From: Thermoleophilaceae bacterium
Lineage (GTDB): Bacteria; Actinomycetota; Thermoleophilia; Solirubrobacterales; Thermoleophilaceae
Length of the DNA: 49,197 bases
Reading direction: 5' to 3'
Assembly (NCBI GenBank): GCA_016929195.1
Contig: JAFGJG010000034.1
Coordinates: 1-49,197 of the forward strand
In this document: piece by piece, positions 17,809-31,995 of the stretch
How positions within the stretch are numbered: position 1 is the first letter of the stretch
Layout of the letters: every line of letters begins with the position of its first letter
Position numbers and translations under genes: made by a program
The notes under the pieces: generated by a model
Told to the model about the DNA's origin: nothing
Seen by the model: only the letters and a program-made list of their open reading frames with translations
Database searches by the model: none

Positions 17809-17837
17809 TTGTGCGCCCTTTGCAGGGGTGTTACGGT
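17809..17837 (+). promoter_or_regulatory. Promoter of the FG-GAP protein gene
   Basis: TTGTGC (17809-17814), a 17-nt spacer and TACGGT (17832-17837) form a recognisable -35/-10 pair. It places transcription start near 17844, downstream of the longest possible start codon (GTG 17828), and therefore argues for a later translation start. Confidence 0.5.
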
Positions 17838-17846
17838 CGGCAGCCC

Positions 17847-17873
17847 GTGCGCTCAGGAACCCTCCACCATTGA
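17847..17873 (+). other. Possible 8-codon upstream ORF coupled to the FG-GAP gene
   Basis: A GTG 9 nt after the TACGGT hexamer opens an ORF of 8 codons (MRSGTLHH) ending in a TGA that overlaps the TTG start of the FG-GAP gene (TTGA). Leaderless translation of this mini-ORF could deliver ribosomes to a start that lacks its own Shine-Dalgarno sequence. Speculative. Confidence 0.3.
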
Positions 17874-20365
17874 GCGGCCGGCTGCGCCCGGCCTGCGCGA
17901 TCACCCTCGCAGCGCTGGCCTGGGCGGCTGAGCCCGCCGTCGCCGCGACCAGCTTCGAGTCCCCTCGGGTCATCGCGGCGGGCGGCCTCGGGTCGGCGTC
18001 GGTGACGCGCGACTTCGACGGCGACGGCAACCTCGACGTGGCCACCGCCGCGGCGACGATCCGATACGGCGACGGGGCCGGCGGCTTCCAGGCGGTGAGC
18101 ATGCCCACGGGTGCGGCGCTCCCGCTGGACGTGGAGAGCGCCGACTTCGACGAGGACCTGCGGCCCGACCTCGCGGCCGCCGGCTTCCCGACCGGGCTGT
18201 CGGTCTTCCTCAGCGACTCGACCGGGGGCTTCGAGCCCCGCTTCACGGTCACGGGCAGCGCGACCGGAGGCGATCTCACCGCCGGCGACTTCGACGGGGA
18301 CGGCCACCAGGACCTCGCGGCCCTCACGGCGACGGGCGTGAGGGTCTTCCGGGGGGACGGCGCGGGGGCGTTCGCCGCCGGGATCGACTTCACGGAGGGA
18401 CACGGGGCGGGCCAGCTCGCCGCGGCTGACCTGGACGGGAACGACCGCGACGATCTGATCGCCACCGACCTGACGGCGGGCGCCGTCCAGGTGCTCCGGG
18501 CGAAGTCGGGGCCGCTGACGACGGGCCCCGGCGGGCTCGAGATCTTCGACGCGCCCGTCGCCTTCCCCACCGCCGCGGAGCCCCGGAAGGTCGTGGTTGC
18601 GGACCTGGACGGCGACGGCAAGCGCGACCTGGTCGTGCGGGCCGCCAGCCTGCAGGTCCTCTACGGGGACGGTGCCGGCGCCTTAGGCGCCGGTCAGACC
18701 GTGACCGCCGGTCCGATCCGGGACGTGATCGCCACCCGGCTCGACGGCGACGCGATCGACGACCTCGTCGTCGGCAGGCCGCAGGGCGAAGCCGAGGTCG
18801 TGTCGCTCGTCCTGGGCCGCTCCGACCGCCAGGCCACGGTTGTCCGCTCGTTCGCGACGGGCCTCGCGGATGACCTGACCCGGCTCGCGGCCGGCGATTT
18901 CGACGACGACGGCGCGGGAGACGTGATCGCCGAGAGCTTCACCGCGGCGCGCCGCCTGCCGGGCCAGACGCTCACGGCCACGCCCGCGAACTTCGGGCTC
19001 ACGCGGATCGGCCGGCCGGTCACGCGCACGGTCACGATCCACAACCCCGATCTCCGCGCCTACACGATCACCGGAGGGAACCTGGACGGGAACGGCTTCA
19101 CCACGTCGGGCGACGGGTGCACGGCGGTCACCCTCCAGCCGGGCGACTCGTGCACCGTGGCCGTGACCTTCGATCCGAGCGTCGCGGAGACCGTGACCGG
19201 GAGGCTGTCGATGAGCAGCGATGCTCCGAACTCGCCTCACCGGGCGACCCTCTCGGCGCAGGCGGTGGACATCCCGGTGCTCGCGCTCGTCTTCCGCCCG
19301 ACGGCCTTCGGCTCGATTCCGCTCGGCGCGAGCAGCGGAGAGCACTTCTTCAGCGCCGCGAACAATGGCGAGTACCCGCTCCAGCTTTCGTCCGTCGAGC
19401 TGGGGGGAGCCGACAAGGATGCGTTCAAGCTGAGGACGAGCTGTGCCACGGCGCTGCTCGACCCGGCGCAGGGCTGCAACGTGTGGGTCCGCTTCACGCC
19501 GAGGCACCTCGGCACGCACACCGCCGCGCTCTACTTCCTCAACGACGGGCGGGACCCGGAGGTGGGCGTGACCCTGATCGGCAGCGGCTCCGGGGAGGCC
19601 CCGAACCCGGAGGCCGGCCTGAGCCCCGCCGCGCTCAACTTCGGGCGCGTGAAGCGCGGGGCGAGCGTGTCGAAGGACGTGCAGCTCCGAAACACGGGCA
19701 ACATCGCGTTCGCGCCCGGGGCCCTGCAGGTCTCGCCGAAGGGAGGGTTCTCGGCCCGGCAGACCGGCTGCGAGCTGCTCGACCCGGGGCAGAGCTGCCG
19801 CGTGACCGTCCGGTTCAGGCCCGGCCGCGAGGGCGCGCAGCAGTCGACCGTCACCTTCGCCGGGCTCGTGCAGGCGCGCTTCTCGGTCAGGGGCACCGGC
19901 TACAACCCGATCCAGCCGAGGCAGCCGCTTCTCGAACGGCTCACGGCGGCGATCGCCGCGTGGCGGGGCCGCGGCATCGAGGGCGTCGCGCGGAAGGGCG
20001 TTCGGGTCCGGGCGCTCGCGGTGGAGCTGGCCGGCAAGGCGGGCCTCCAGGTGTCGGGCCGCCGCAAGGGCAGGACGATCGTCGTGGCCCAGGGCCTGGC
20101 GCCGTACCCGGAGGCGGGCACAGGCGAGCTGCTCGCCAGCCCGACGAAGGGCACGAGGGCGCTCTTCAAGGGCCTGACCCGCGTGACGCTCAGGGCCCGC
20201 CTCCGCTTCCGCACCACCCTCGGCGAGCTGACGGAGGTGGTGAAGACGTTCGTGGTCAGGCGCCTGACGCGTAAGGCATCCTTTGCGTCGTGCTCGGCGT
20301 CGCCGGCCAGGAATCTCCCTTCGGCCTCTCCTCCTCCGAGGAGCGGCTGCTCGCCGAGCGGGTAG
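17870..20365 (+). CDS. Secreted FG-GAP/VCBS-repeat and choice-of-anchor-D protein
   Basis: About 831 residues from the TTG at 17870, a start that gives a normal signal peptide (basic SGRLRPA, hydrophobic core CAITLAALAWAA, cleavage after AVA). The N-terminal half (about 40-370) holds FG-GAP/VCBS repeats with calcium-type loops such as DFDGDGNLD, DFDGDGHQD, DLDGDGKRD and DFDDDGAGD, folding as a beta-propeller. Then come about three Ig-like choice-of-anchor-D/ASPM-HYDIN modules (FGLTRIGRPVTRTVTIHN; FGSIPLGASSGEHFFSA; NFGRVKRGASVSKDVQLRN), each with a Cys-containing PG.SC motif. No enzymatic motif is seen; a surface binding or adhesion role is likely. The ORF runs 76 nt into menF. An alternative start is GTG 17828, but the promoter argues against it. 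Confidence 0.75.
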   Translation: MSGRLRPACAITLAALAWAAEPAVAATSFESPRVIAAGGLGSASVTRDFDGDGNLDVATAAATIRYGDGAGGFQAVSMPTGAALPLDVESADFDEDLRPDLAAAGFPTGLSVFLSDSTGGFEPRFTVTGSATGGDLTAGDFDGDGHQDLAALTATGVRVFRGDGAGAFAAGIDFTEGHGAGQLAAADLDGNDRDDLIATDLTAGAVQVLRAKSGPLTTGPGGLEIFDAPVAFPTAAEPRKVVVADLDGDGKRDLVVRAASLQVLYGDGAGALGAGQTVTAGPIRDVIATRLDGDAIDDLVVGRPQGEAEVVSLVLGRSDRQATVVRSFATGLADDLTRLAAGDFDDDGAGDVIAESFTAARRLPGQTLTATPANFGLTRIGRPVTRTVTIHNPDLRAYTITGGNLDGNGFTTSGDGCTAVTLQPGDSCTVAVTFDPSVAETVTGRLSMSSDAPNSPHRATLSAQAVDIPVLALVFRPTAFGSIPLGASSGEHFFSAANNGEYPLQLSSVELGGADKDAFKLRTSCATALLDPAQGCNVWVRFTPRHLGTHTAALYFLNDGRDPEVGVTLIGSGSGEAPNPEAGLSPAALNFGRVKRGASVSKDVQLRNTGNIAFAPGALQVSPKGGFSARQTGCELLDPGQSCRVTVRFRPGREGAQQSTVTFAGLVQARFSVRGTGYNPIQPRQPLLERLTAAIAAWRGRGIEGVARKGVRVRALAVELAGKAGLQVSGRRKGRTIVVAQGLAPYPEAGTGELLASPTKGTRALFKGLTRVTLRARLRFRTTLGELTEVVKTFVVRRLTRKASFASCSASPARNLPSASPPPRSGCSPSG
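20277..20289 (+). promoter_or_regulatory. Leaderless-type promoter of menF
   Basis: CATCCT (20277-20282) followed by 7 nt and the GTG at 20290, inside the 3' end of the FG-GAP gene. It supports the chosen menF start despite the 76-nt overlap. Confidence 0.4.
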
Positions 20366-21738
20366 AGCGGGCGCTCGCGCTCGCCAGGCGCGGGGGAGGG
20401 CCTGCCGTTGCGGCGGTGACGGTGCCGGTCCCTGCCGGCCTCGACGTCTCCGCCGCCGTCCTCGCCGCCCGCCGCGCGTCCGATCGCTTCTTCTGCTTCG
20501 AGCAGCCCGACCGCCGCGGCTTCGCGCTCGCCGCGCTGGGCTCCGCCGCGACGGTGGAGGCGCGTGGGCCGGACCGCTTCGCGTCGGCCACCCGGCGCGT
20601 GCGCGAGCTGGCGTCGCGGACCTTCGCGGACGACCCGGGCCGCGACCCGGCGCGGCCGCCGGCCGCGGGCCCGGTATTCCTCGGCGGGTTCGCGTTCGCG
20701 CACCACGGGGGCGGGTCGCCGGAGTGGTCCTCGCTCGCGCCGGCCTCGCTCGTGCTCCCCGAGCTCGCGCTCGCCCGGCACGGCGACGAGGCGCGGCTCA
20801 CGGTCGCGGTGGCGGCCGGTCCGGACGACGACCCCGGGGGGCTGCTCGAGCGGGCGCGCACGCGTCTCTCGGAGCTGCTTCCCGCACGGATGCCGCTGCT
20901 CGACCCCGACCCGCTCGAGCGCGCGCGGGTCTACGGCGCGGCACCGCCGTCGCACTACGAGGAGGCGGTGGCCCGGGCTGTGGAGCGGATCGCCGCCGGC
21001 GAGCTCGACAAGGTGGTGCTCGCCCGCGAGGTGCGCGTCCACGGCCCCCGGGAGCACGATCCCGCGCCGGTCATGGACGCGCTGAGAGCGGCGTTCCCGG
21101 CGTGCTACTGCTGGTGCGTCGGCACGCCCGAGCTGACCTTCCTGGGCGCCAGCCCGGAGCTGCTCGTCCGCCGCGACGGCGCCCGTGCCCAGACCGTGGC
21201 GCTCGCCGGCACCACGCGCCGGAGCGCGGACCCGGCGGTGGACGACCACCTGGGCGAGCAGCTCCTCCGCAGCGACAAGGACCGCAGCGAGCAGGAGATC
21301 GTCGCCCGCCGGATCGAGCGCACGCTCGGCCCCGTGAGCCTCTGGGTGGCCGCGGGCGAGGAGCCGGCGCTGGTGAAGGTCCAGAACGTCCAGCACCTCG
21401 CGACCGCGATCCGCGCGCAGCTCGCGCGCCCTCTGCACACGCTCGAGCTGGCCGGCCTGCTGCACCCGACGCCCGCCGTCGGCGGCGAGCCGCGTGCCGC
21501 CGCCGAGCCGCTCATCCCGGCCCTCGAGGGCCTCGACCGCGGCTGGTACGCCGGCGCGGTCGGCTGGACGGACCTCGCCGAGGACGGCGAGCTGTGCGTG
21601 GCGCTCCGCTGCGCACTGCTGCGCGGCCGGACCGCGCATCTCTACGCGGGGTGCGGAATCGTCCGCGACTCCGTTCCCGCCGAGGAGCTCGCGGAGACCG
21701 AGGTCAAGCTCGAGGCACTGTTGCCGCTGCTGGCCTGA
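20290..21738 (+). CDS. menF: Isochorismate synthase
   Basis: A 482-residue chorismate-binding enzyme converting chorismate to isochorismate, the entry to menaquinone synthesis. Signature blocks are the general-base lysine segment ELDKVVLAREV (about 238-248), FLGASPELLVRR, TVALAGTTRRS, SEQEIVARRI, VQNVQHLATAI, LHPTPAVGGEP and LDRGWYAGAVGW. The N-terminal 170 residues match the divergent scaffold of MenF/EntC. The other men genes lie 10-16 kb downstream, supporting MenF over a siderophore EntC. The GTG at 20290 is supported by the -10 hexamer 7 nt upstream. Confidence 0.92.
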   Translation: MLGVAGQESPFGLSSSEERLLAERVERALALARRGGGPAVAAVTVPVPAGLDVSAAVLAARRASDRFFCFEQPDRRGFALAALGSAATVEARGPDRFASATRRVRELASRTFADDPGRDPARPPAAGPVFLGGFAFAHHGGGSPEWSSLAPASLVLPELALARHGDEARLTVAVAAGPDDDPGGLLERARTRLSELLPARMPLLDPDPLERARVYGAAPPSHYEEAVARAVERIAAGELDKVVLAREVRVHGPREHDPAPVMDALRAAFPACYCWCVGTPELTFLGASPELLVRRDGARAQTVALAGTTRRSADPAVDDHLGEQLLRSDKDRSEQEIVARRIERTLGPVSLWVAAGEEPALVKVQNVQHLATAIRAQLARPLHTLELAGLLHPTPAVGGEPRAAAEPLIPALEGLDRGWYAGAVGWTDLAEDGELCVALRCALLRGRTAHLYAGCGIVRDSVPAEELAETEVKLEALLPLLA

Positions 21739-21741
21739 CGT

Positions 21742-21753
21742 TAGGCTGCGGAT
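21742..21753 (+). promoter_or_regulatory. Promoter of the six-gene mce operon
   Basis: TAGGCT (21742-21747) lies 4 nt after the menF stop and 6 nt before the GTG of the first mce gene. The five later mce junctions are 1- or 4-nt overlaps, so this is the only internal promoter position visible for the operon. Confidence 0.45.
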
Positions 21754-23121
21754 GTGGCGAGCGCAGGGATAGCGCAGCCCGAGGAGGAGAGTTCTCGGCT
21801 GCCGAGGATTCTCGCGGGGGTGGCGCTGCTGTGCGCCGTCCTCCTCGTGCTGGCGCTGATCCTCTTCAGCGGCAGTTCCTACAAGGTCACCGCGGAGTTC
21901 GACAACGCGGGCCAGCTGGTCAGGGGCAACGACGTCCGCGTGGGCGGCGCGAAGGTCGGCACCGTCCAGGAGATCGACGTCTCGCAGTCCGGCCTCGCCG
22001 AGGTGACCTTCGAGATCGAGGACGAGGACTACGTGCCGCTCCGGCGCGGCACGGAGGCGGTGGTGAAGCTCGGGTCGCTGTCGGGCATCGCGAACCGCTA
22101 CATCGACCTCCAGCTCGGCCCGGACTCGGGCGACGACATCGCCGACGGAGGCCGCATCGGCCACGACGACACGCGCGCGGCCGTGGAGCTGGACCAGGTC
22201 TTCGCGATCTTCGACGAGCGCACGCGCCGCGGGCTCCAGGACGTGGTCGCGGGCTCCGCCCAGTCGCTCGCGGGCCGCGGCGAGGAGCTGCGGAGGGGGA
22301 TCCACTACCTCAACCCGGCCCTGTCGACGGGCGCCCGCCTGTTCGGCGAGCTGTCGCGCGACGACCGCCTCCTGAGCCGCTTCCTCGTGGACTCGTCGGA
22401 TCTGGTGACGGCGCTGGGGCAGCGCCGCCGCGAGCTCCGTGGCGCCGTCGAGGGGCTCGGGACGACCTTCACCGCGCTCGGTGGCCAGCAGGAGGCGCTC
22501 GGCGACGCGGTGGGCCGCCTGCCCCCGTTCCTGAGGCGCGCGAACACCACCTTCGTGGACCTGAGGTCGGCGCTCGACGACGTGGACCCGCTGGTGGACG
22601 CCGCGAAGCCGGTGGCGCGCCGGCTCGGACCGTTCCTGTCGCAGGCGCGGCTGTTCGCCGCGGATGCCGAGCCGACCGTTCGCGATCTCTCGCGCACGAT
22701 CCGCTCCCCGGGTGACGCGAACGACCTGATCGAGGCCTTCCGCAGCTTCCCGCCGCTCGCGCGCTCGGCGCTCGACGCCGTCCGCGTGAACGGGGCGCTC
22801 CGGCGCGGCGCGCTCCCGGAGACGACCGCCGCCCTCCGCGCCGCGGCGCCGACGATCGCGCTGGGGCGCCCGTACACGCCGGAGTTCGTCGGCTGGATGG
22901 ACGACTTCTCGACGACGGGCGCCTACGACGCGCTCGGGGAGTACTCGCGTGCCTGGGTCAACCTCTCAGAGATCCTCTACGGCCCCGGCCCGAAGCTCGG
23001 CCAGTTCAGGCGCTGTCCGGGCGCGAACGAGGAGCCGGCGCCGGACGGGTCGAACGTCCTCTCGGCATCCGAGCAGGCGAGGCTCGGCTGCACGGATGCG
23101 CACAGGTCGGTGGGGCCGTGA
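21754..23121 (+). CDS. Mce/MlaD-family protein 1 of 6
   Basis: A 455-residue protein with one N-terminal transmembrane anchor (about 18-40), then an MCE/MlaD beta-barrel domain (about 43-120, YKVTAEFDNAGQLVRGNDVRVGGAKVGTV). A long helical region (about 150-390) follows, of the kind that forms the needle or tunnel in mycobacterial Mce hexamers. MCE proteins bind and move hydrophobic substrates across the envelope. The C-terminal tail holds a Cys pair (Cys421, Cys446). It is the first gene of the run and overlaps the second by GTGA. Confidence 0.92.
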   Translation: MASAGIAQPEEESSRLPRILAGVALLCAVLLVLALILFSGSSYKVTAEFDNAGQLVRGNDVRVGGAKVGTVQEIDVSQSGLAEVTFEIEDEDYVPLRRGTEAVVKLGSLSGIANRYIDLQLGPDSGDDIADGGRIGHDDTRAAVELDQVFAIFDERTRRGLQDVVAGSAQSLAGRGEELRRGIHYLNPALSTGARLFGELSRDDRLLSRFLVDSSDLVTALGQRRRELRGAVEGLGTTFTALGGQQEALGDAVGRLPPFLRRANTTFVDLRSALDDVDPLVDAAKPVARRLGPFLSQARLFAADAEPTVRDLSRTIRSPGDANDLIEAFRSFPPLARSALDAVRVNGALRRGALPETTAALRAAAPTIALGRPYTPEFVGWMDDFSTTGAYDALGEYSRAWVNLSEILYGPGPKLGQFRRCPGANEEPAPDGSNVLSASEQARLGCTDAHRSVGP

Positions 23122-24524
23122 AGCCCTGGCTGCTCGCCGCGCTGGCCGCGCTGACGCTCTGCGGGCTGGTGCTCGCGATCGCCGCGACCGAGGACGGCGA
23201 CTCGGACGGCCGCACCTACGAGATCGTGTTCGACAACGCCTTCGGCCTGTCGGAGGGCGGGGACTTCAAGGTCGCCGGCGTCCGTGCCGGGACGACGGGC
23301 GACCTGAGGGTGAGCGACGGCCCGCGGCGCTTCGCGATCGTCACCGCGGAGGTCACCGAGCCCGGCTTCGCGGACCTGCGCCGGGACGCCCGCTGCGAGA
23401 TACGCCCGCAGTCGTTCATCGGCGAGTACTTCGTGGACTGCCAGCCCGGCTCGTCGGATGAGCGCATCCCCGACGGCGGGCGCGTGCCGGTCGAGCAGAC
23501 CAGCTCGACGATCCCGGTCGACCTCGTCAACAACATCGTCCGGCGCCCGTACGCGGACCGCCTGCGGATCATCGTGGGAGAGCTCGGCGCCGGCCTGGCC
23601 GGGCGCCCGGGTGACCTGAGCGAGGTCCTGCGGCGGGCTCACCCCGGCCTCCGCGAGACCAACCAGACGCTGCGCGTGCTGGCGCGCCAGACGCGGACGA
23701 TCGAGCGCGTCATCACGGACGCCGACACTGTCGTCGGCGAGCTGGCGCGGCGACGGGGGGACGTCGCCCGCTTCGTCCGCGAGGCGGGCTCCACCGCCGC
23801 GGTCGCGGCCACCCGCCGGGACGACCTCGCAGCCTCGTTCGACCGGCTGCCGGCCTTCCTCGGGGAGCTGGACCCGTACATGCTCCGGCTGGGGCAGCTG
23901 GCGACCGCGCAGCAGCCTGTGCTGCGCAACCTGCGCGCGTCGGCCGCCGGGCTCGACACGTTCCTGACGCGCGTGCAGCCGTTCACCGAGGCCGGCCTAC
24001 CGGCCACGACCAGCCTCGGAGACGCGTCGGTGGTCGGGCGGCGGGCCGTTCGCGCGACGAGCGACGACCTGGAGGAGCTGGCCGGCTTCGCCAAGGCCGC
24101 CCCAGGGCTGGCGAAGCCGCTCCGCCAGTTCCTCGAGTCGACCGACGACCGCCGCCGGGCGGTCGAGCCGGACCCGCGCGCGGCCGCCACCGATCCGCCG
24201 GCGCCCGACAAAACGCACATCACGGGTGAGGGCGGCTTCACGGGAATGGAGGCCGTCTGGGACTACTTCTTCTGGCAGGCGCTCTCGACGAACGCGCTCG
24301 ACGACCTCGGGCACGTGCTGCGGCTGAACGTGAGCGTCGGCCCGTGCTCCGGCTACTTCAACCACCGCGAGGGCCAGGAGGCGGGATTCGACCAGTGCCG
24401 CCAGTGGCTCGGCCCGCGCCAGCCGGGCATCAACGAGCCGGAGCCCACCGCGGCAGCCGCGAGCGCCGCGGCACCGGCGGTCGGTCCCGACGAGCCCGTC
24501 CTCGACTACCTCCTCGGCCCATGA
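23118..24524 (+). CDS. Mce/MlaD-family protein 2 of 6
   Basis: A 468-residue Mce protein: anchor helix at about 4-23, MCE domain about 33-115 (YEIVFDNAFGLSEGGDFKVAGVRAGTTGDL), helical domain to about 350 and a variable tail. It differs from the other five in having two cysteines inside the MCE domain (DARCEIRPQS and FVDCQPG), plus the C-terminal pair Cys410/Cys427. The Cys in LTLCG at the end of the signal anchor does not fit a clean lipobox. The C-terminus is Ala/Pro-rich. It starts with GTG overlapping the previous stop and ends overlapping the next ATG. Confidence 0.9.
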   Translation: MKPWLLAALAALTLCGLVLAIAATEDGDSDGRTYEIVFDNAFGLSEGGDFKVAGVRAGTTGDLRVSDGPRRFAIVTAEVTEPGFADLRRDARCEIRPQSFIGEYFVDCQPGSSDERIPDGGRVPVEQTSSTIPVDLVNNIVRRPYADRLRIIVGELGAGLAGRPGDLSEVLRRAHPGLRETNQTLRVLARQTRTIERVITDADTVVGELARRRGDVARFVREAGSTAAVAATRRDDLAASFDRLPAFLGELDPYMLRLGQLATAQQPVLRNLRASAAGLDTFLTRVQPFTEAGLPATTSLGDASVVGRRAVRATSDDLEELAGFAKAAPGLAKPLRQFLESTDDRRRAVEPDPRAAATDPPAPDKTHITGEGGFTGMEAVWDYFFWQALSTNALDDLGHVLRLNVSVGPCSGYFNHREGQEAGFDQCRQWLGPRQPGINEPEPTAAAASAAAPAVGPDEPVLDYLLGP

Positions 24525-26044
24525 GACGCGCGCGCGGAGCACTCAGCGCGAGTCCGGTGCTGGTGGGCGCGGTCACCGTGCTTGTGGCCCTGGTCGCGGT
24601 CTTCATCTCGTACAGCGCGAACGAGGGCCTGCCTTTCGTGCCGACCTACAAGCTCGAGGCCGAGCTGCCGAACGCGTCCAAGCTCGTGGCCGGCAACGAC
24701 GTGCGCGCCGGCGGCTTCCGCGTCGGCCGCGTCGGCGAGATCCGCAGTGCCCGCCGGCGGGTCGCCGGCCGCGAACGGTCGATCGCCGTCGTGGAGCTCG
24801 AGCTGGACAAGCGGGTTGAGGAGCTGCCCGAGGACACGCGCGTCACGGTGCGCTCCCGGTCGGCGCTCGGCCTGAAGTACGTCGAGCTCGTGCCGGGCAT
24901 CTCACGGGACACGCTGATCGCCGGGGACACCATCCCGCTGCGCCGCGGGCAGACGACCCCGGAGGACCTCGAGGACGTGCTGTCCACGTTCCAGCCGGAG
25001 ACGCGCGTGGACGCCCGCCTGGCGCTCCAGGGCTTCGGTGACGGGCTCGCGGGCCGCGGCCCGGCCATCAACCGCACGATCGAGGAGCTGCGTCCGTTCC
25101 TCACCCGGCTCCAGCCGGTGATGCGCGCGCTCTCGGCTCGCAGCACGGAGCTTCGCGGGCTCTTCCCGGCACTCGGGCAGGCGCTCCGGCAGGCGGCGCC
25201 GGTCGCCGCCGTGCAGGCGGGCTGGTTCGCCGACATGGCCGACACCTTCGCCGCGATCGGCCGCGACCCGGCCGCGCTCCAGGACACGATCTCCGAGACG
25301 CCGTCCACGCTCGACGCGGCGATCGCCTCGTTCCAGGTCCAGACGCCGTTCCTGGCGCGCTTCGCCGACGTGTCGCGCCGCCTCCAGCCGGCGACCCTGG
25401 AGCTGCGGCGCGCGCTCCCGCCGCTGAACGCGGCGCTCGCGGCGGGAGTGCCCGCCTTCCGCCGCACGCCGGAGCTGGCCGCGCGCCTGGAGGAGCTGTT
25501 CAGGTCCGGCGAGGACCTCGGTGATGACCCCGTCAACGCCCTGGCGCTCCGCGACCTGCGCAACGCCGCCGAGATCGCCGGGCCGGCCGTCCGCTTCGTG
25601 GCGCCCTACCAGACGGTCTGCAACTACCTGAACTACTTCTTCACGCCGCTCGGCACGCACCAGTCCGAGACGGTTCCGGGCGGGACGGCGCAGCGGATCC
25701 TCGCGAAGCTCCTGTTCGGAGACCAGCCGAACAACCTCGGCACGACCGAGTCGAGCCGGCCGGTCGACACGCCCGGGGACCCGAAGGAGGGGGCCGTGCA
25801 GGCGCTGCACAAGCAGCCGAACAGCCCGGCCGTGGACTCGCAGGGCAGGGCGGACTGCCAGGCGGGCCAGACGGGCTACCTCAGCCGCCTGGTGACCGAC
25901 GGGCGCTATCCGGTCGAGACGAACCCCGACACCTTCAAGGGCGGCGGCACGCACGTCGTGATGGACCCCGACACGCCCGGACGCCTCGGCGGCACGTACA
26001 AGGCGCGTGAGCTCGGCATCGACGGGGTGGAGGACCTTCCCTGA
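24521..26044 (+). CDS. Mce/MlaD-family protein 3 of 6
   Basis: A 507-residue Mce protein, the longest of the set. Anchor helix about 14-31; MCE domain about 40-125 (YKLEAELPNASKLVAGNDVRAGGFRVGRVGEI, then SALGLKYVELVPG); helical region about 150-360. The tail includes QTVCNYLNYFFTPLGTHQSE and a second Cys (Cys367, Cys446). The YLNYFF segment is reminiscent of a conserved block in mycobacterial Mce proteins. ATG at 24521 overlaps the previous stop (ATGA); its own stop shares TGATG with the next gene. Confidence 0.91.
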   Translation: MRRARGALSASPVLVGAVTVLVALVAVFISYSANEGLPFVPTYKLEAELPNASKLVAGNDVRAGGFRVGRVGEIRSARRRVAGRERSIAVVELELDKRVEELPEDTRVTVRSRSALGLKYVELVPGISRDTLIAGDTIPLRRGQTTPEDLEDVLSTFQPETRVDARLALQGFGDGLAGRGPAINRTIEELRPFLTRLQPVMRALSARSTELRGLFPALGQALRQAAPVAAVQAGWFADMADTFAAIGRDPAALQDTISETPSTLDAAIASFQVQTPFLARFADVSRRLQPATLELRRALPPLNAALAAGVPAFRRTPELAARLEELFRSGEDLGDDPVNALALRDLRNAAEIAGPAVRFVAPYQTVCNYLNYFFTPLGTHQSETVPGGTAQRILAKLLFGDQPNNLGTTESSRPVDTPGDPKEGAVQALHKQPNSPAVDSQGRADCQAGQTGYLSRLVTDGRYPVETNPDTFKGGGTHVVMDPDTPGRLGGTYKARELGIDGVEDLP

Positions 26045-27408
26045 TGCGCGCGCGCCGGCACCGTCTATCCGAGTTCCAGATCGGCGCGCTCGTCATCGTC
26101 CTGACCGCGCTGTTCGTGCTGCTCGCGTTCACGAAGGTGAACCCGTTCTCGAACCCGTACGAGCTGAAGGCGGGCTTCCGGGACGCGCGCAACATCGGCG
26201 TCGGCTCACCGGTCCGGATCGCGGGCGTGGAGGTCGGCCGCGTCTCGAAGCTCGAGCCGAGCGGAGACGGGGCGGCCACGGTCACGATGGAGCTGCGCGA
26301 CGACGCGCTCCCGATCCATCGCGACGTCACGCTCAAGATCCGCCCGCGGATCCTTCTCGAGGGCAACTACTTCGTGGACGTCCGGCCGGGCACGCCCGGC
26401 GCGGAGGCGCTCGACGACGGGAGCACGGTGCCGGTCACGCAGACGGCCACCTCTGTGTCGCTGCCGGACGTGGTGGCCACGCTCACGACCGACACCCGCA
26501 CGGACCTGCAGTCGCTCCTCCAGGAGTACGGCTCGAAGGGGCTCGCGAACGGCGGCGCACAGGCGCTGAATCGCTCGATCCCGTACTTCGCGCCCGCCTA
26601 CCGCCGGACCGCGATCACCAACGACGCGCTCCTCGGCACGCAGCCGAACCGCGACCTCCGGCGGCTCCTGCGCGGGCAGGCGCGCACGTTCGGCGCGCTG
26701 GCCGCGCGGCCGGAGCAGCTGAAGGACCTCGTGCGGGATCTGGACTCGGTGGCGAGCGCGCTCGCGAGCCAGGACTCCGCGCTCGCGGCCTCGGTTCCGG
26801 CCCTGCGCGACACGCTCCGCGTGGGCTATCCGGTGCTCGCCGACGTGGACGCCGCCCTGCCCTCGCTGCGGCGGTTCTCCATCGAGGCGCTGCCGGGGGT
26901 CGAGTCCACGGCGCCGATGCTCGGCGTCGCCATCCCGTGGATCGCCCAGGCCCGCGCGCTCGTGAGCCCGCAGGAGCTGCGCGGGCTCTCGGCCGACCTG
27001 CGCCGCGCGGTGCCCGGCCTCGTGCGGCTCAACAACCGGCTCGTGCCGCTGAACGCGCAGCTCCGGGCGCTCTCCTCGTGCACGTCCAGCGTGCTCGTCC
27101 CGTTCGCCGAGTCCGAGATCCCGAGCATCGAGGCGAACAACGCGAATCAGCAGGTCCGGCGCCAGATCTTCCGCAGCTTCGTCGGCCTCGCGGGCGAGAG
27201 CCGCGTGCAGGACGCCAACTCCCAGGTCTTCCACGTCCAGGGCGTGATCCCGTCGAACCTCGCGACCGGGCGGATCGAGCCGGCCGCGCCGCTCGATCCC
27301 GGGACGCCGCCCGTCCATCGCCCGGACGTGCCCTGCGAGACCCAGGACCCGCCCGTCCTGGCGGCCCCCGGCGGTCCGGCCGCCGCCTACTCGGCGGTGA
27401 CGCCGTGA
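26044..27408 (+). CDS. Mce/MlaD-family protein 4 of 6
   Basis: A 454-residue Mce protein. The basic start MRARRHRLSEFQ precedes an anchor helix (about 12-28). The MCE domain (about 38-120) contains YELKAGFRDARNIGVGSPVRIAGVEVGRV and ILLEGNYFVDVRPG. The helical region extends to about 345. The only two cysteines are Cys346 and Cys431 in the C-terminal part. The downstream junction is GTGA. Confidence 0.91.
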   Translation: MRARRHRLSEFQIGALVIVLTALFVLLAFTKVNPFSNPYELKAGFRDARNIGVGSPVRIAGVEVGRVSKLEPSGDGAATVTMELRDDALPIHRDVTLKIRPRILLEGNYFVDVRPGTPGAEALDDGSTVPVTQTATSVSLPDVVATLTTDTRTDLQSLLQEYGSKGLANGGAQALNRSIPYFAPAYRRTAITNDALLGTQPNRDLRRLLRGQARTFGALAARPEQLKDLVRDLDSVASALASQDSALAASVPALRDTLRVGYPVLADVDAALPSLRRFSIEALPGVESTAPMLGVAIPWIAQARALVSPQELRGLSADLRRAVPGLVRLNNRLVPLNAQLRALSSCTSSVLVPFAESEIPSIEANNANQQVRRQIFRSFVGLAGESRVQDANSQVFHVQGVIPSNLATGRIEPAAPLDPGTPPVHRPDVPCETQDPPVLAAPGGPAAAYSAVTP

Positions 27409-28823
27409 AGCACGCGATCCGCACGCACATCAAGGCCTTCCTGGCGGTCCTCGGCGTGATCGTGATCGGCGTGGCGGTCGCCGTCGGGATCCTCTCCGAG
27501 CAGGGTGTGCGCTTCCCGTTCGTCGAAGCGGCTCCGAAGCGCATCGAGGTCGAGCTGTCCGACGCCCAGGCCGTCGAGCCCGGGCGCGGCCAGACCGTCC
27601 GGGTGGCGGGCGTGGAGATCGGGAAGATCGCCGGCGTCCGGCTGGAGGACGGCCGCGCCGTCGTGGAGCTGGACATCGAGCACCGCTACGGCGACATGGT
27701 CCGCGCGGACGCGACCGCGCTCCTGCGCCCGAAGACGGCGCTCAAGGACATGTTCCTCGAGGTCGACCCCGGCACCGGGCGGGTCGTGCCCGAGGGCGGC
27801 CGGATCGGCGTCTCCGCCACGGCCCCGGACGTGGACCCGGACGAGATCCTCGCCGCGCTCGACGCCGACACGCGCCCCTACCTGAAGCTGCTAATCGCCG
27901 GCGCCGGCAAGGGGCTCCGCGACCGCGGCGACGACCTCAACGCCACCCTGCGCCGCCTCGAGCCGCTCCACCGCGACCTCGCCCGAGTCACGCAGGCGAC
28001 GGCCAAGCGGCGAAAGGCGCTGAAGCGGCTGGTCCACAGCTACGGCCTGCTCACGTCCGAGCTCGGGCGCCACCCGAGCGACCTCGAGCGGCTGGTGAGC
28101 GCCTCGGGCGAGGTGTTCGGGTCGCTCGCCGGCGAGGACGACGACATCGCGACCGCCACGGCCCGTCTGCCCGGGGCCCTGCGGCGATCGGAGGCGACGC
28201 TGGGCGAGGTGGGCGGCTTCGCGCGCGAGCTGCCGCCGACCCTCGATGCGCTTCTGCCCGCCGTTCGCCGCCTGCCCGCGGCGAACGCGGCGCTGCGGCC
28301 CTTCTTCTCTGCGACCACCCCGGTGCTGCGCGACCAGATCCGCCCGTTCGTGCGGGCGGCCCGGCCGTGGACGGCCGACCTGCGCACGGCGGCCGTGGAG
28401 GGCTCAAAGGCCGCGCCCGACCTCAGGCGCGCGCTCGGGTCGGCCAACCGCTTCCTCAACATGGGCGCGTTCAACCCCGGCGGCGCCGAGGGGCTCGGCG
28501 GGCTGAATGTGACCGAGCAGCGCGCCCGCCAGGAGGGGCTCCTCTACTGGCTCGCATGGACGGCGCAGAACGGCGTTTCGCTGTTCAACACGGCGGATGC
28601 GCAGGGCCCGTGGCGGCGCGTGACGATCTGCGGGGTGGACGCCGCCTCGCTCGGGGTGCTCCTGAATTTCACCCTGACGAACGTCGGGCAGACGAACCCG
28701 ACCCTCCTCCAGCAGCTGACCGGCGCCTCCGACGGCACGATCGTGCCGGGAAGCCCCGTCCAGAACCTGCTCGACACGCAGTTCGGCAGCTGCGACTTCG
28801 ACGACCTCCCGACCTCACCGTGA
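27405..28823 (+). CDS. Mce/MlaD-family protein 5 of 6
   Basis: A 472-residue Mce protein: anchor helix about 9-28, MCE domain about 45-125 (RIEVELSDAQAVEPGRGQTVRVAGVEIGKI and ALKDMFLEVDPG), and a helical region about 145-350. The C-terminal domain contains LNMGAFNPGG and LYWLAWTAQNGVSLFNTADAQGP, which look like a small membrane-facing or ligand-proximal segment. The only cysteines are Cys409 and Cys463 near the end. Start GTG overlaps the preceding stop. Confidence 0.91.
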   Translation: MKHAIRTHIKAFLAVLGVIVIGVAVAVGILSEQGVRFPFVEAAPKRIEVELSDAQAVEPGRGQTVRVAGVEIGKIAGVRLEDGRAVVELDIEHRYGDMVRADATALLRPKTALKDMFLEVDPGTGRVVPEGGRIGVSATAPDVDPDEILAALDADTRPYLKLLIAGAGKGLRDRGDDLNATLRRLEPLHRDLARVTQATAKRRKALKRLVHSYGLLTSELGRHPSDLERLVSASGEVFGSLAGEDDDIATATARLPGALRRSEATLGEVGGFARELPPTLDALLPAVRRLPAANAALRPFFSATTPVLRDQIRPFVRAARPWTADLRTAAVEGSKAAPDLRRALGSANRFLNMGAFNPGGAEGLGGLNVTEQRARQEGLLYWLAWTAQNGVSLFNTADAQGPWRRVTICGVDAASLGVLLNFTLTNVGQTNPTLLQQLTGASDGTIVPGSPVQNLLDTQFGSCDFDDLPTSP

Positions 28824-30304
28824 ACAAACAGGGCCCCGGCATAGGCGGACTTGCGGCGATCGTGGGGTTCGCCCTCTCGGTCGTGCTGCTCCTGACCTTC
28901 CTCTGGATCGCGTTCGGCGGCTCGCTGCCCACCGCCCCCGAGGGCTATCGCTTCAGGGCGGCGTTCCCGGAGGCGGCCCTGCTCGTCGACGAGGCCGACG
29001 TGCGAATGGCGGGGGTGAACGTCGGCAAGGTGAAGGACAAGGACCTGGCTCCGGGCGGGCGCCGGACGATCGCGGAGATCGAGGTCGACGACCGCTTCGC
29101 CCCGGTGAAGCGCGACGCCCGCGTGGTGCTGCGGCAGAAGAGCCTCCTGGGCGAGACCTACGTGGAGCTCGCGCCGGGCAGCCGCGACGCGCCCGACCTG
29201 CCCGAGGGCGCGCTGCTCCCCCGCACCCACGTGAAGCAGACGGTCGAGCTGGACGAGATCTTCAGCGCGTTCGACCCGCGGACGCGGCGCTACTTCCAGG
29301 AGTGGCTGCGGGAGTCGGGCATCGCCACCTCCGGCACGTACGCCGCCGACTTCAACGACTCGCTCGGCAACTCGGCCCCGTTCTTCACCGCCGGCGCCCG
29401 GACGCTGCGGCCGCTCGCCGAGCAGGACGTGGCGCTCCGCCGGCTGGTCCGCAACACGGGCCGGGTGGCGCGCGCCGTGTCGGCGGACGGCCACAGCCTG
29501 CGCGACCTGATCACCGGCGGCGGGGCCACCTTCGCGGCGCTCGCAGCCCGCGACGAGGCGCTGGCGGACACGTTCCAGGTGCTGCCGACGTTCCTGCGCG
29601 AGACGCGGGCGACGGTCGCGCGGCTCGAGCGCTTCGCGCGCAACACGGATCCGCTCGTGCGCGACCTGCGCCAGCCGGTGACCGACCTGGCGCCGACGCT
29701 GCGGGACGTGGCCGACCTCTCCCCGGACCTCGAGCACCTGTTCAACTCGATCGGCCCGCTCGTGACCGCCTCGGAGACGGGCGTGCCGGCGGCCGACAGG
29801 CTCCTCGACGGCGTCCAGCCGACGCTGGCGGCGGCGCACGTGTTCCTGCCGGAGCTGAACCCGATCCTGGCCTATCTCTCGTTCTCGCGGGAGCAGCTCG
29901 CGACCTTCCTGGCCCCGGGAGGCTCCGCGCTCGGCGGCAACGGGATCGGCGGCTACCGCTCCTCGACGTTCGCCGAGCACTACCTGCCGCAGTCGGCGAT
30001 CATCGACTCGCGCTCCCTCCAGCGCCGCACGAGCAGGCCCGCGTACGAGCGCGCGAACGCGTACGTCGCCCCGAACGCATGGGAGCGCAGCATCGGCCTG
30101 GGCGCGATCGAGGCCTTCGACTGCGACCCGTCCGGCGGCGAGCGCCGCAACCCGTCCGGCACCGCGGCGAACGCCGCGCCGCCGTGCTTCGTGGCGCCGC
30201 CGCTCCTGTTCCAGGATCAGCGCTACCCGCGGCTGCGCAAGGGACGCGCTCCGCACGTGGACGCGCCCGCCGGCCGGCAGGGCAACGAGCCCGCCGTGCC
30301 CTAG
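28820..30304 (+). CDS. Mce/MlaD-family protein 6 of 6
   Basis: A 494-residue Mce protein closing the run. Anchor helix about 8-28; MCE domain about 38-120 (YRFRAAFPEAALLVDEADVRMAGVNVGKV, SLLGETYVELAPG); helical region about 150-360. A tail with FLAPGGSALGGNGIGGYRSSTFAEHYLPQ carries its only two cysteines (Cys435, Cys456). The last 30 residues are basic and Pro/Gly-rich. Its TAG stop overlaps the menD stop on the opposite strand within the tetranucleotide CTAG. Confidence 0.91.
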   Translation: MNKQGPGIGGLAAIVGFALSVVLLLTFLWIAFGGSLPTAPEGYRFRAAFPEAALLVDEADVRMAGVNVGKVKDKDLAPGGRRTIAEIEVDDRFAPVKRDARVVLRQKSLLGETYVELAPGSRDAPDLPEGALLPRTHVKQTVELDEIFSAFDPRTRRYFQEWLRESGIATSGTYAADFNDSLGNSAPFFTAGARTLRPLAEQDVALRRLVRNTGRVARAVSADGHSLRDLITGGGATFAALAARDEALADTFQVLPTFLRETRATVARLERFARNTDPLVRDLRQPVTDLAPTLRDVADLSPDLEHLFNSIGPLVTASETGVPAADRLLDGVQPTLAAAHVFLPELNPILAYLSFSREQLATFLAPGGSALGGNGIGGYRSSTFAEHYLPQSAIIDSRSLQRRTSRPAYERANAYVAPNAWERSIGLGAIEAFDCDPSGGERRNPSGTAANAAPPCFVAPPLLFQDQRYPRLRKGRAPHVDAPAGRQGNEPAVP

Positions 30305-31995
30305 GGGACGAGCTCGGCCACACGCTCGACCAGCGCCGCGTGCAGCCGCACGTTCTCGGCGCGGTCGGTCCGCACCTCCACGAGGGCCGGGGTGGCCACG
30401 GCGCCCGCGACCTCCTCCGGCGTGGCGGCCACGCGATGCGCGAGCCCGCCGAGCGCCGCCAGCTCGGCGAGGTCCACGCCATGGGGGGTGGCCACGTGGC
30501 GCTCGTAGGCGGACGCGTCGGCCGCGGCGGCCACCGGCAGGAAGTCGAAGATGCCCCCGCCGCCGTTGTTCACGCAGACGATCGTCAGCTCCGCTCCGGC
30601 CCGGCGGGCGCTGATGAGGCCGCCGGCGTCGTGGAGCAGCGCCACGTCGCCCGTCAGGAGGTGGGCGGGGCGCCCGGCCCCGAGCGCCGCCCCGGTGGCG
30701 GCCGACACGACGCCGTCGATCCCGTTGGCGCCGCGAGCGGCGAGCACGCGCAGCGGCCTCGGGGTTGAGGGGAGGAACGCCTCGACGTCGCGGACCGGCA
30801 TCGAGTGCGCAACCCAGAGCAGCGCGTCGTCGGGGAGCGCCGGCGCGAGCGCTGCGGGGATCGCGCCCTCGAACCCCGCCGGGGATTCCGCGAGCGCCCG
30901 CGGGACAGCCGCGTCGGCGGCGCGCCACGACTCGACCCAGGCGGGGTCTCCGCCCCCGCCTTCCCCGGCGAGCTCTGCGAGCAGGGTGGCCGGGTCGCCG
31001 GCCGCGACCAGCCGCGCCTCGCGCGTGGGGTCGTGCCAGGTGACGCGCGGGTCGATCACCGCCTGGTCGGTCCCGGCGAGCCATGCGCGCAGCGACTGCG
31101 AGACCGGCGGCTCGCCCACGCGCAGGACCCGCTCGGGGCGGTGGCCCGCGGCGAAGGCCTCCACGCGGAGCAGCACGTCGTAGTGGGCCACGACGTGCGA
31201 GCGGTCGTGGGGCCCGCTGCGGACCCCGGAGGCGGGGTCGGCGAGGAGCGGCCAGCCGAGGGCGGCCGCCAGCGCAGCGGCGGGCGCGGCCATCTCCCCG
31301 GGCGCCTCGCCGCACACGATCACGCCGCGTTCCGCGCCGCCGATCCATTCGCGCAGCGCGGCGGCCCCGCCGGCGCCCGGCTCGCGCTCCACGGCGACCC
31401 AGGGGCTGCCGTCCGGGCGCCCCTCCCAGTCGGCTGCGTCGAGATCCTCGGGCCGCGGCGCGAGCGGCTCGCGCAGCGGGAAGTTCAGGTGGACGGGACC
31501 CGGCCGGCCGCCCGCGGCGGTCGCGACCGCGCGGCAGGCGAGCCCGCGGTGGTGGACCGCGGTGGCCCGCCCGGGCTCGTGGCCGCCGACCTCGTGGAAC
31601 CACTTGGCGGCCGATCCGTAGAGCCCGAGCTGGTCGATCGACTGGCCGGCTCCGACGTCGCGCAGCTCGGGCGGGCGGTCCGCCGTCAGCACGAGCAGCG
31701 GCACCGACGCCTCGCGCGCCTCCGCCACGGCCGGGTGGAGGTTGGCGGCCGCGGTGCCCGACGTGCACGTCACCGCCACCGGCGCGCCCGTGGCCCGCGC
31801 GATCCCGACGGCCACGAAGCCCGCCGAGCGCTCGTCGATCACGGACACCGCCTCGATGCCGGGCTGCTCCGCGAGGACGAGGGCGAGCGGCGCGTTGCGC
31901 GAGCCCGGGGACGTGACGGCGTGGCGGACGCCGCAGCGGGCGAGCTCGTCCACGAACGCCTGGACCGGGGCATAGGTCCGGTTGATCGGCTGCAC
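30301..31995 (-). CDS. menD: SEPHCHC synthase
   Basis: A 564-residue ThDP enzyme that adds the succinic-semialdehyde unit of 2-oxoglutarate to isochorismate, the second step of menaquinone synthesis. MenD signatures are TSPGSRNAPLALVL, IDERSAGFVAVG (with the ThDP Glu), TCTSGTAAANLHPAV, TADRPPELRDVGAGQSIDQ, GDVALLHDAGGL and VCVNNGGGGIFDFLP. The GTG at 31995 is 20 nt from the divergent menH start. It ends tail-to-tail with the last mce gene. Confidence 0.95.
   Translation of the reverse strand: MQPINRTYAPVQAFVDELARCGVRHAVTSPGSRNAPLALVLAEQPGIEAVSVIDERSAGFVAVGIARATGAPVAVTCTSGTAAANLHPAVAEAREASVPLLVLTADRPPELRDVGAGQSIDQLGLYGSAAKWFHEVGGHEPGRATAVHHRGLACRAVATAAGGRPGPVHLNFPLREPLAPRPEDLDAADWEGRPDGSPWVAVEREPGAGGAAALREWIGGAERGVIVCGEAPGEMAAPAAALAAALGWPLLADPASGVRSGPHDRSHVVAHYDVLLRVEAFAAGHRPERVLRVGEPPVSQSLRAWLAGTDQAVIDPRVTWHDPTREARLVAAGDPATLLAELAGEGGGGDPAWVESWRAADAAVPRALAESPAGFEGAIPAALAPALPDDALLWVAHSMPVRDVEAFLPSTPRPLRVLAARGANGIDGVVSAATGAALGAGRPAHLLTGDVALLHDAGGLISARRAGAELTIVCVNNGGGGIFDFLPVAAAADASAYERHVATPHGVDLAELAALGGLAHRVAATPEEVAGAVATPALVEVRTDRAENVRLHAALVERVAELVP

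What the first reader, a model, noticed from the sequence alone, without database searches (positions are those of the whole stretch)
21754..30304. Complete six-subunit mce set without permease or ATPase, inserted inside the menaquinone locus
Canonical mce operons start with two YrbE/MlaE permeases followed by six mce genes. Here six mce genes with overlapping junctions follow menF directly, and menD follows directly, with no YrbE or MlaF gene anywhere in the window. Either permeases are supplied from elsewhere or the hexamer works differently. The setting hints at lipid or quinone-related cargo, though it may be chance.
Basis: partly seen in the sequence, partly recalled or inferred. Interest (0 to 1): 0.6.

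Follow-up and report, generated by a model that had tools for sequence, protein, structure and literature searches.

The report
Lipid-transport needle set lacking its motor
These six genes encode a complete lipid-transport 'needle' that carries no membrane motor of its own, and comparison with relatives indicates that it plugs into one shared motor encoded elsewhere in the genome, so one transporter engine may serve several exchangeable lipid channels.

Summary
Six intact mce genes (21754-30304, + strand) lie 15 bp after menF and end 4 bp inside the convergent menD; no YrbE/MlaE or Mkl/MlaF gene was found in the window. The genome does encode them: a second, canonical operon (yrbEB fragment at a contig edge, mkl, mceA-E; then mceF and an RND gene on another contig). 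In Solirubrobacterales this is a pattern. The window set belongs to a well-supported clade of permease-less six-gene sets in Thermoleophilaceae and Solirubrobacteraceae. Several genomes keep only such a set plus a 'gutted' yrbEA-yrbEB-mkl-RND cluster with no mce between; one complete genome has six permease-less sets and one gutted core. The first transmembrane helices of MceC and MceF stay core-like in permease-less sets (56-77% and 51-76% identity to the canonical clade) but not in sets with their own divergent YrbE (21-45%, 11-39%), without overlap. Best reading: exchangeable Mce rings docking in trans on one YrbEA/YrbEB/Mkl motor. The menaquinone setting is confined to one genus; elsewhere menF and menD are usually adjacent, and the junction also accepts unrelated genes, so no quinone cargo is indicated. 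All evidence is computational; many genomes are draft MAGs.

The parts
20290..21738 (+). menF-like isochorismate synthase, directly upstream; probable co-transcription with mceA (15 bp gap)
   Evidence: PF00425 E=2.9e-74; sequence of junction; no promoter-like site at the junction
21754..23121 (+). mceA (permease-less set)
   Evidence: PF02470; 45% to mceA of the genome's canonical set
23118..24524 (+). mceB
   Evidence: PF02470; best match canonical mceB, 33%
24521..26044 (+). mceC
   Evidence: PF02470; best match canonical mceC, 43%
24551..24643 (+). MceC N-terminal TM segment (residues 11-41), proposed docking contact
   Evidence: 64% identity to the canonical clade in the TM region, against 38% in the helical region
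26044..27408 (+). mceD
   Evidence: PF02470; best match canonical mceD, 39%
27405..28823 (+). mceE
   Evidence: PF02470; best match canonical mceE, 45% over the part held
28820..30304 (+). mceF
   Evidence: PF02470; best match canonical mceF, 48%; model with TM helix, MCE barrel and helices
28841..28921 (+). MceF N-terminal TM segment (residues 8-34), proposed docking contact
   Evidence: 51% identity to the canonical clade, low for a permease-less set but above every set with its own divergent YrbE (maximum 39%)
30301..31995 (-). menD, convergent neighbour, overlaps mceF by 4 bp; not part of the mce operon
   Evidence: TPP enzyme domains PF02776, PF02775, PF16582; menF-menD adjacent in other genera

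Best explanation
The six genes encode one exchangeable Mce ring-and-needle (A-F heterohexamer) of an actinobacterial Mce lipid transporter. It has no motor of its own and docks in trans on the shared inner-membrane core YrbEA/YrbEB with the Mkl (MceG-type) ATPase, which is encoded with an RND-family protein elsewhere in the genome. The first transmembrane helices of MceC and MceF are the most likely docking contacts. Shown here: six intact genes; core encoded elsewhere; a recurrent permease-less clade; the core kept without adjacent mce genes; MceC/MceF helix conservation. Inferred: physical docking, heterohexamer formation, lipid cargo, ATP-driven transport. In this genus the set was inserted between menF and menD, which probably puts it under the menF promoter; the cargo is unknown.
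For: Second, canonical operon with yrbEB and mkl in the same genome. Relatives G001, G003, G018, G004 and G008 have only an ortholog of the window's set, plus yrbEA-yrbEB-mkl next to an RND gene with no mce in between. Mce and MlaE co-occur in 165 of 183 genomes of the order and are both absent in 15. Permease-less clade with support 1.0. MceC/MceF first TM helix: core-like in 38 of 38 unlinked sets, not in 11 of 11 sets with their own divergent YrbE, no overlap. YrbEA/YrbEB/Mkl are 80-98% identical between the congeners G001 and G002-type references while Mce proteins are about 55-75%. In the Mce1 structure the TMs of Mce1A, B, C and F interact around YrbE1AB (PMC9882608).
Against: No direct evidence of a complex. 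yrbEA is not in this assembly (contig edge). G104 (510 contigs) and G009 show Mce without MlaE. The conserved helices could contact another shared membrane partner, or keep an ancestral sequence for other reasons; the sets are not independent. G018 and G004 show frame breaks in yrbEB, possibly sequencing errors.
Confidence: 0.75

Rival explanations
1. The permease-less hexamer works without an ABC motor, like LetB/PqiB, as a passive or differently powered bridge with another inner-membrane partner.
For: No permease or ATPase is encoded beside any member of the clade. MCE proteins without MlaE partners are known in E. coli (LetB, PqiB; own knowledge).
Against: One MCE domain per protein, not several. 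No PqiA/LetA-family protein in the genome (PF04403). Genomes with only this kind of set still keep an intact yrbEAB-mkl core. The helices that should meet the core are the best conserved part.
Confidence: 0.12
2. The set is a duplicate that is being lost or has no transport role; its permeases were lost and the remaining genes drift.
For: Lack of the permease and ATPase part of the operon.
Against: All six frames are open with tight overlaps; orthologs are intact across two families and in complete genomes; the state is ancestral to a whole clade. In several genomes it is the only mce set.
Confidence: 0.04
3. The set is a dedicated menaquinone or naphthoquinone-precursor transporter, coupled to menF.
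For: It lies 15 bp behind menF and next to menD, and the men linkage is seen in all three genomes of the genus (contig edge before menF in G001).
Against: Outside the genus the orthologous sets are not at men and the men order is conserved without them; the same junction holds a multicopper oxidase, a WS/DGAT gene, or MMPL and MFS genes in other genera.
Confidence: 0.05

Closest known systems
Actinobacterial Mce transporters (Mce1/Mce4: YrbEA, YrbEB, MceA-F, with MceG/Mkl)
   Same: Six different Mce proteins in the order A-F; N-terminal TM helix, MCE domain, helical region; MceG is already known to be shared between Mce systems (PMC9882608, PMC9947336).
   Different: No yrbE pair in the operon; [quoted passage not shown]
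oMce1A (MSMEG_6540), orphan Mce1A paralog of M. smegmatis
   Same: An Mce protein encoded away from the permease that co-purifies with the Mce1 complex (PMC9882608).
   Different: A single subunit, not a complete six-gene set.
Second mce5 copy of M. paratuberculosis (MAP2189-MAP2194)
   Same: A six-gene mce set listed without yrbE genes (table in PMC1810536).
   Different: Seen as an apparent recent duplication in one species, not as an ancient permease-less clade across an order.
MlaFEDB (type VIII ABC transporter)
   Same: MCE ring anchored by TM helices on an MlaE permease dimer with an MlaF ATPase; MceF model matches MlaD.
   Different: Homohexameric ring, all parts in one operon.
LetB / PqiB
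   Same: MCE proteins that do not use MlaE-type permeases, a possible precedent for a permease-free hexamer.
   Different: Several MCE domains per chain and a PqiA/LetA partner, neither seen here.

Membership tests
Actinobacterial Mce transporter (type VIII ABC) | Six distinct Mce proteins A-F, one PF02470 domain each | tested here: met
Actinobacterial Mce transporter (type VIII ABC) | N-terminal TM helix, MCE barrel, helical needle region | tested here: met
   MceF model (TM and barrel at good confidence, helices at low confidence); PDB fold matches Mce1 and MlaD; hydrophobic N-termini of the other subunits in sequence
Actinobacterial Mce transporter (type VIII ABC) | Pair of yrbE (PF02405) genes in the same operon | tested here: not met
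   None in the window; only PF02405 hit is on C137
Actinobacterial Mce transporter (type VIII ABC) | YrbE pair and Mkl/MceG ATPase encoded in the genome | tested here: inconclusive
   yrbEB fragment and complete mkl on C137; yrbEA missing from this draft but intact in congeners G001, G002
Actinobacterial Mce transporter (type VIII ABC) | Ring physically assembled on YrbEAB and ATP-driven lipid transport | not testable with these tools
   Needs biochemistry; only indirect support from TM conservation
LetB/PqiB-type MCE system | Several MCE domains per chain with a PqiA/LetA partner | tested here: not met
   One domain per protein; no PF04403 in the genome
Menaquinone pathway-linked transporter | Conserved linkage to men genes across relatives | tested here: not met
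   Linked only in the genus of the window

The most novel reading that the evidence does not exclude
Solirubrobacterales run a plug-in MCE system: one strongly conserved YrbEA/YrbEB/Mkl motor serves several complete, separately regulated six-protein needles, with the MceC and MceF transmembrane helices as the docking key; sets that have their own divergent permease do not carry the key.
Probability: 0.6. Interest if true: 0.75.

Novelty: new variant of a known kind. Interest (0 to 1): 0.62.

Why it matters
Mce systems are usually read as eight-gene units in which each ring has its own permease pair. If one motor serves many rings, substrate specificity would lie in the exchangeable needle, as with swappable binding proteins of other ABC importers, and permease counts would underestimate transport capacity. 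The MceC/MceF helix rule gives a sequence test of which rings share a motor. Full-text searches of the held library found no description in this order; most subscription papers were not searchable.

Tried and rejected
Assembly artefact: rejected, because the set and its men neighbours recur in two congeners and the permease-less state in complete genomes. Undetected permease next to the set: no MlaE hit near the orthologous sets. Quinone cargo: rejected on synteny. Neighbour-based cargo: neighbours vary (guanylate cyclase, SpoIIE, TPP enzyme, rpoB). LetA/PqiA partner: none in the genome. A region request and one script failed for trivial reasons and were repeated. Extraction of mycobacterial permease-less sets for the helix test gave incomplete sets and was dropped. 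Heterohexamer modelling was not possible with single-chain prediction.

Full report
WHAT IS THERE. Six co-directional ORFs at 21754-30304 each carry one Mce/MlaD domain. The A-F order follows from similarity to the genome's other Mce set: A 45%, B 33%, C 43%, D 39%, E 45%, F 48%, each best with its positional counterpart. mceA starts 15 bp after menF; no sigma-70-type promoter-like site was found in 21500-30500, though that scan does not cover other promoter types. mceF ends 4 bp inside menD, which is on the other strand. A model of MceF shows a TM helix (8-31), an MCE barrel (43-140) and helices (144-370); only the first 142 residues are confident. Its best PDB matches are M. smegmatis Mce1 subunits and MlaD.

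WHERE THE MOTOR IS. The genome has 12 Mce domains: six in the window, five on C137, one on C155. C137 reads yrbEB (cut by the contig edge), mkl, mceA-D, partial mceE; C155 reads a mceE end, mceF, RND. That C137 and C155 are one operon is inferred from the canonical order in G002. yrbEA is missing from this draft but intact in the congener G002, which has both sets.

A RECURRENT PATTERN. The order is Solirubrobacterales (named matches). Canonical loci read yrbEA-yrbEB-mkl-mceA-F-RND, for instance in Solirubrobacter and Paraconexibacter antarcticus; orthologs of the window's set never had yrbE or core mkl attached where the upstream flank was held. In a tree of 62 concatenated sets the permease-less window clade has support 1.0, and again when the TM columns are left out and 15 sets of G022 are added. 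Among 183 genomes, Mce and MlaE occur together in 165 and are both absent in 15; Mce without MlaE occurs only in G009 (2 hits) and G104 (510 contigs), MlaE without Mce only in G183. By my count 29 genomes have at least three Mce more than three per MlaE, including the single-contig G005, G022, G048 and G072. Outside the order most sampled Actinomycetota keep close to three Mce per MlaE, but mycobacterial-type genomes also have some sets without a detectable yrbE.

NATURAL DELETIONS. In G001, G003, G018, G004 and G008 the only mce set is an ortholog of the window's, and yrbEA-yrbEB-mkl stands next to the RND gene with no mce between (gaps of 99-387 bp, against 8.8-8.9 kb filled by six mce in intact operons). 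G023, G029, G026 (family f3), and G155, G159 and G022 (f2), show a core without mce alongside other sets; in G023 4.1 kb of other DNA separates mkl and RND. A core that stays 73-98% identical in YrbE with no linked Mce most likely serves an unlinked one. This is the strongest argument for sharing in trans, and it is an inference. G018 and G004 have frame breaks in yrbEB, and several of these genomes are incomplete.

DOCKING SIGNATURE. Between the permease-less and canonical clades the N-terminal TM helices of MceC and MceF are 70% and 65% identical, about as high as within the clades, while the helical region is 40-44% and the tail 27-29%. In the complete genome G022 all six permease-less sets have core-like helices (MceC 63-74%, MceF 54-73%) and all nine sets with their own divergent YrbE do not (21-45%, 11-38%). 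Over all sets there is no overlap. Permease-less sets that group beside sets with their own YrbE in the tree, with weak support (L164, L176, L178, L028, L040), keep core-like helices, which separates the signal from kinship in part; L164 and L178 are also about as divergent in body. In the Mce1 structure the TMs of Mce1A, B, C and F interact around YrbE1AB (PMC9882608). Caveats: the sets are related, the yardstick is the canonical clade itself, and another shared membrane partner could impose the same constraint.

MEN SETTING. ilvB-ilvH-menF-menD-menC-menE-ilvC, with menH between menD and menC in most, is conserved across the order; menF and menD are adjacent in G018, G015, G005, G186, G080 and G023, so the mce set was inserted in this genus. 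Other genera carry unrelated inserts at the same junction. Many orthologous sets elsewhere have a divergent ECF-type sigma factor gene upstream of mceA; its ortholog lies on other contigs in G000 and G001. I infer that the move behind menF rewired expression and does not reveal cargo.

VERDICT. The permease most likely comes from elsewhere in the genome; this is a variant architecture of the known Mce transporter, a shared motor with exchangeable rings. Assembly and transport remain to be shown experimentally.

Noticed in passing
L024, L029, L032, L035, L037, L077, L094, L110, L116, L173 (upstream of mceA): A divergently transcribed ECF-type sigma factor gene with a long C-terminal extension lies upstream of mceA in many orthologous permease-less sets; in G000 and G001 its ortholog is on another contig.
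   Followed up: partly
L191 (G240), L192 (G255), L193 (G215): Mycobacterial-type genomes, one of them a single contig, also carry mce sets with no detectable yrbE beside them.
   Followed up: partly
L168-L183 (G022): A single-contig genome of 4.4 Mb holds 91 Mce domains and 20 MlaE: six permease-less sets, nine sets with their own divergent YrbE, and one core without mce.
   Followed up: yes
L155, L156, L157 (between menF and menD): The menF-menD junction holds MMPL and MFS genes in G016, a WS/DGAT gene in G014 and a multicopper oxidase in G003, as if it were an insertion-prone site.
   Followed up: partly
L037, L041, L069, L085, L098, L171 (downstream of mceF): A TPP-dependent enzyme, 28-30% identical to ilvB in most, recurs downstream of several permease-less sets.
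   Followed up: partly
window 17828-20365: An 845-aa FG-GAP repeat plus ASH/HYDIN-like Ig domain protein, probably secreted, lies between ilvH and menF, and its ORF overlaps the menF ORF by 76 bp.
   Followed up: no
G054, G062, G130, G135 (search tables): Some genomes show the reverse imbalance, four MlaE for six Mce.
   Followed up: no
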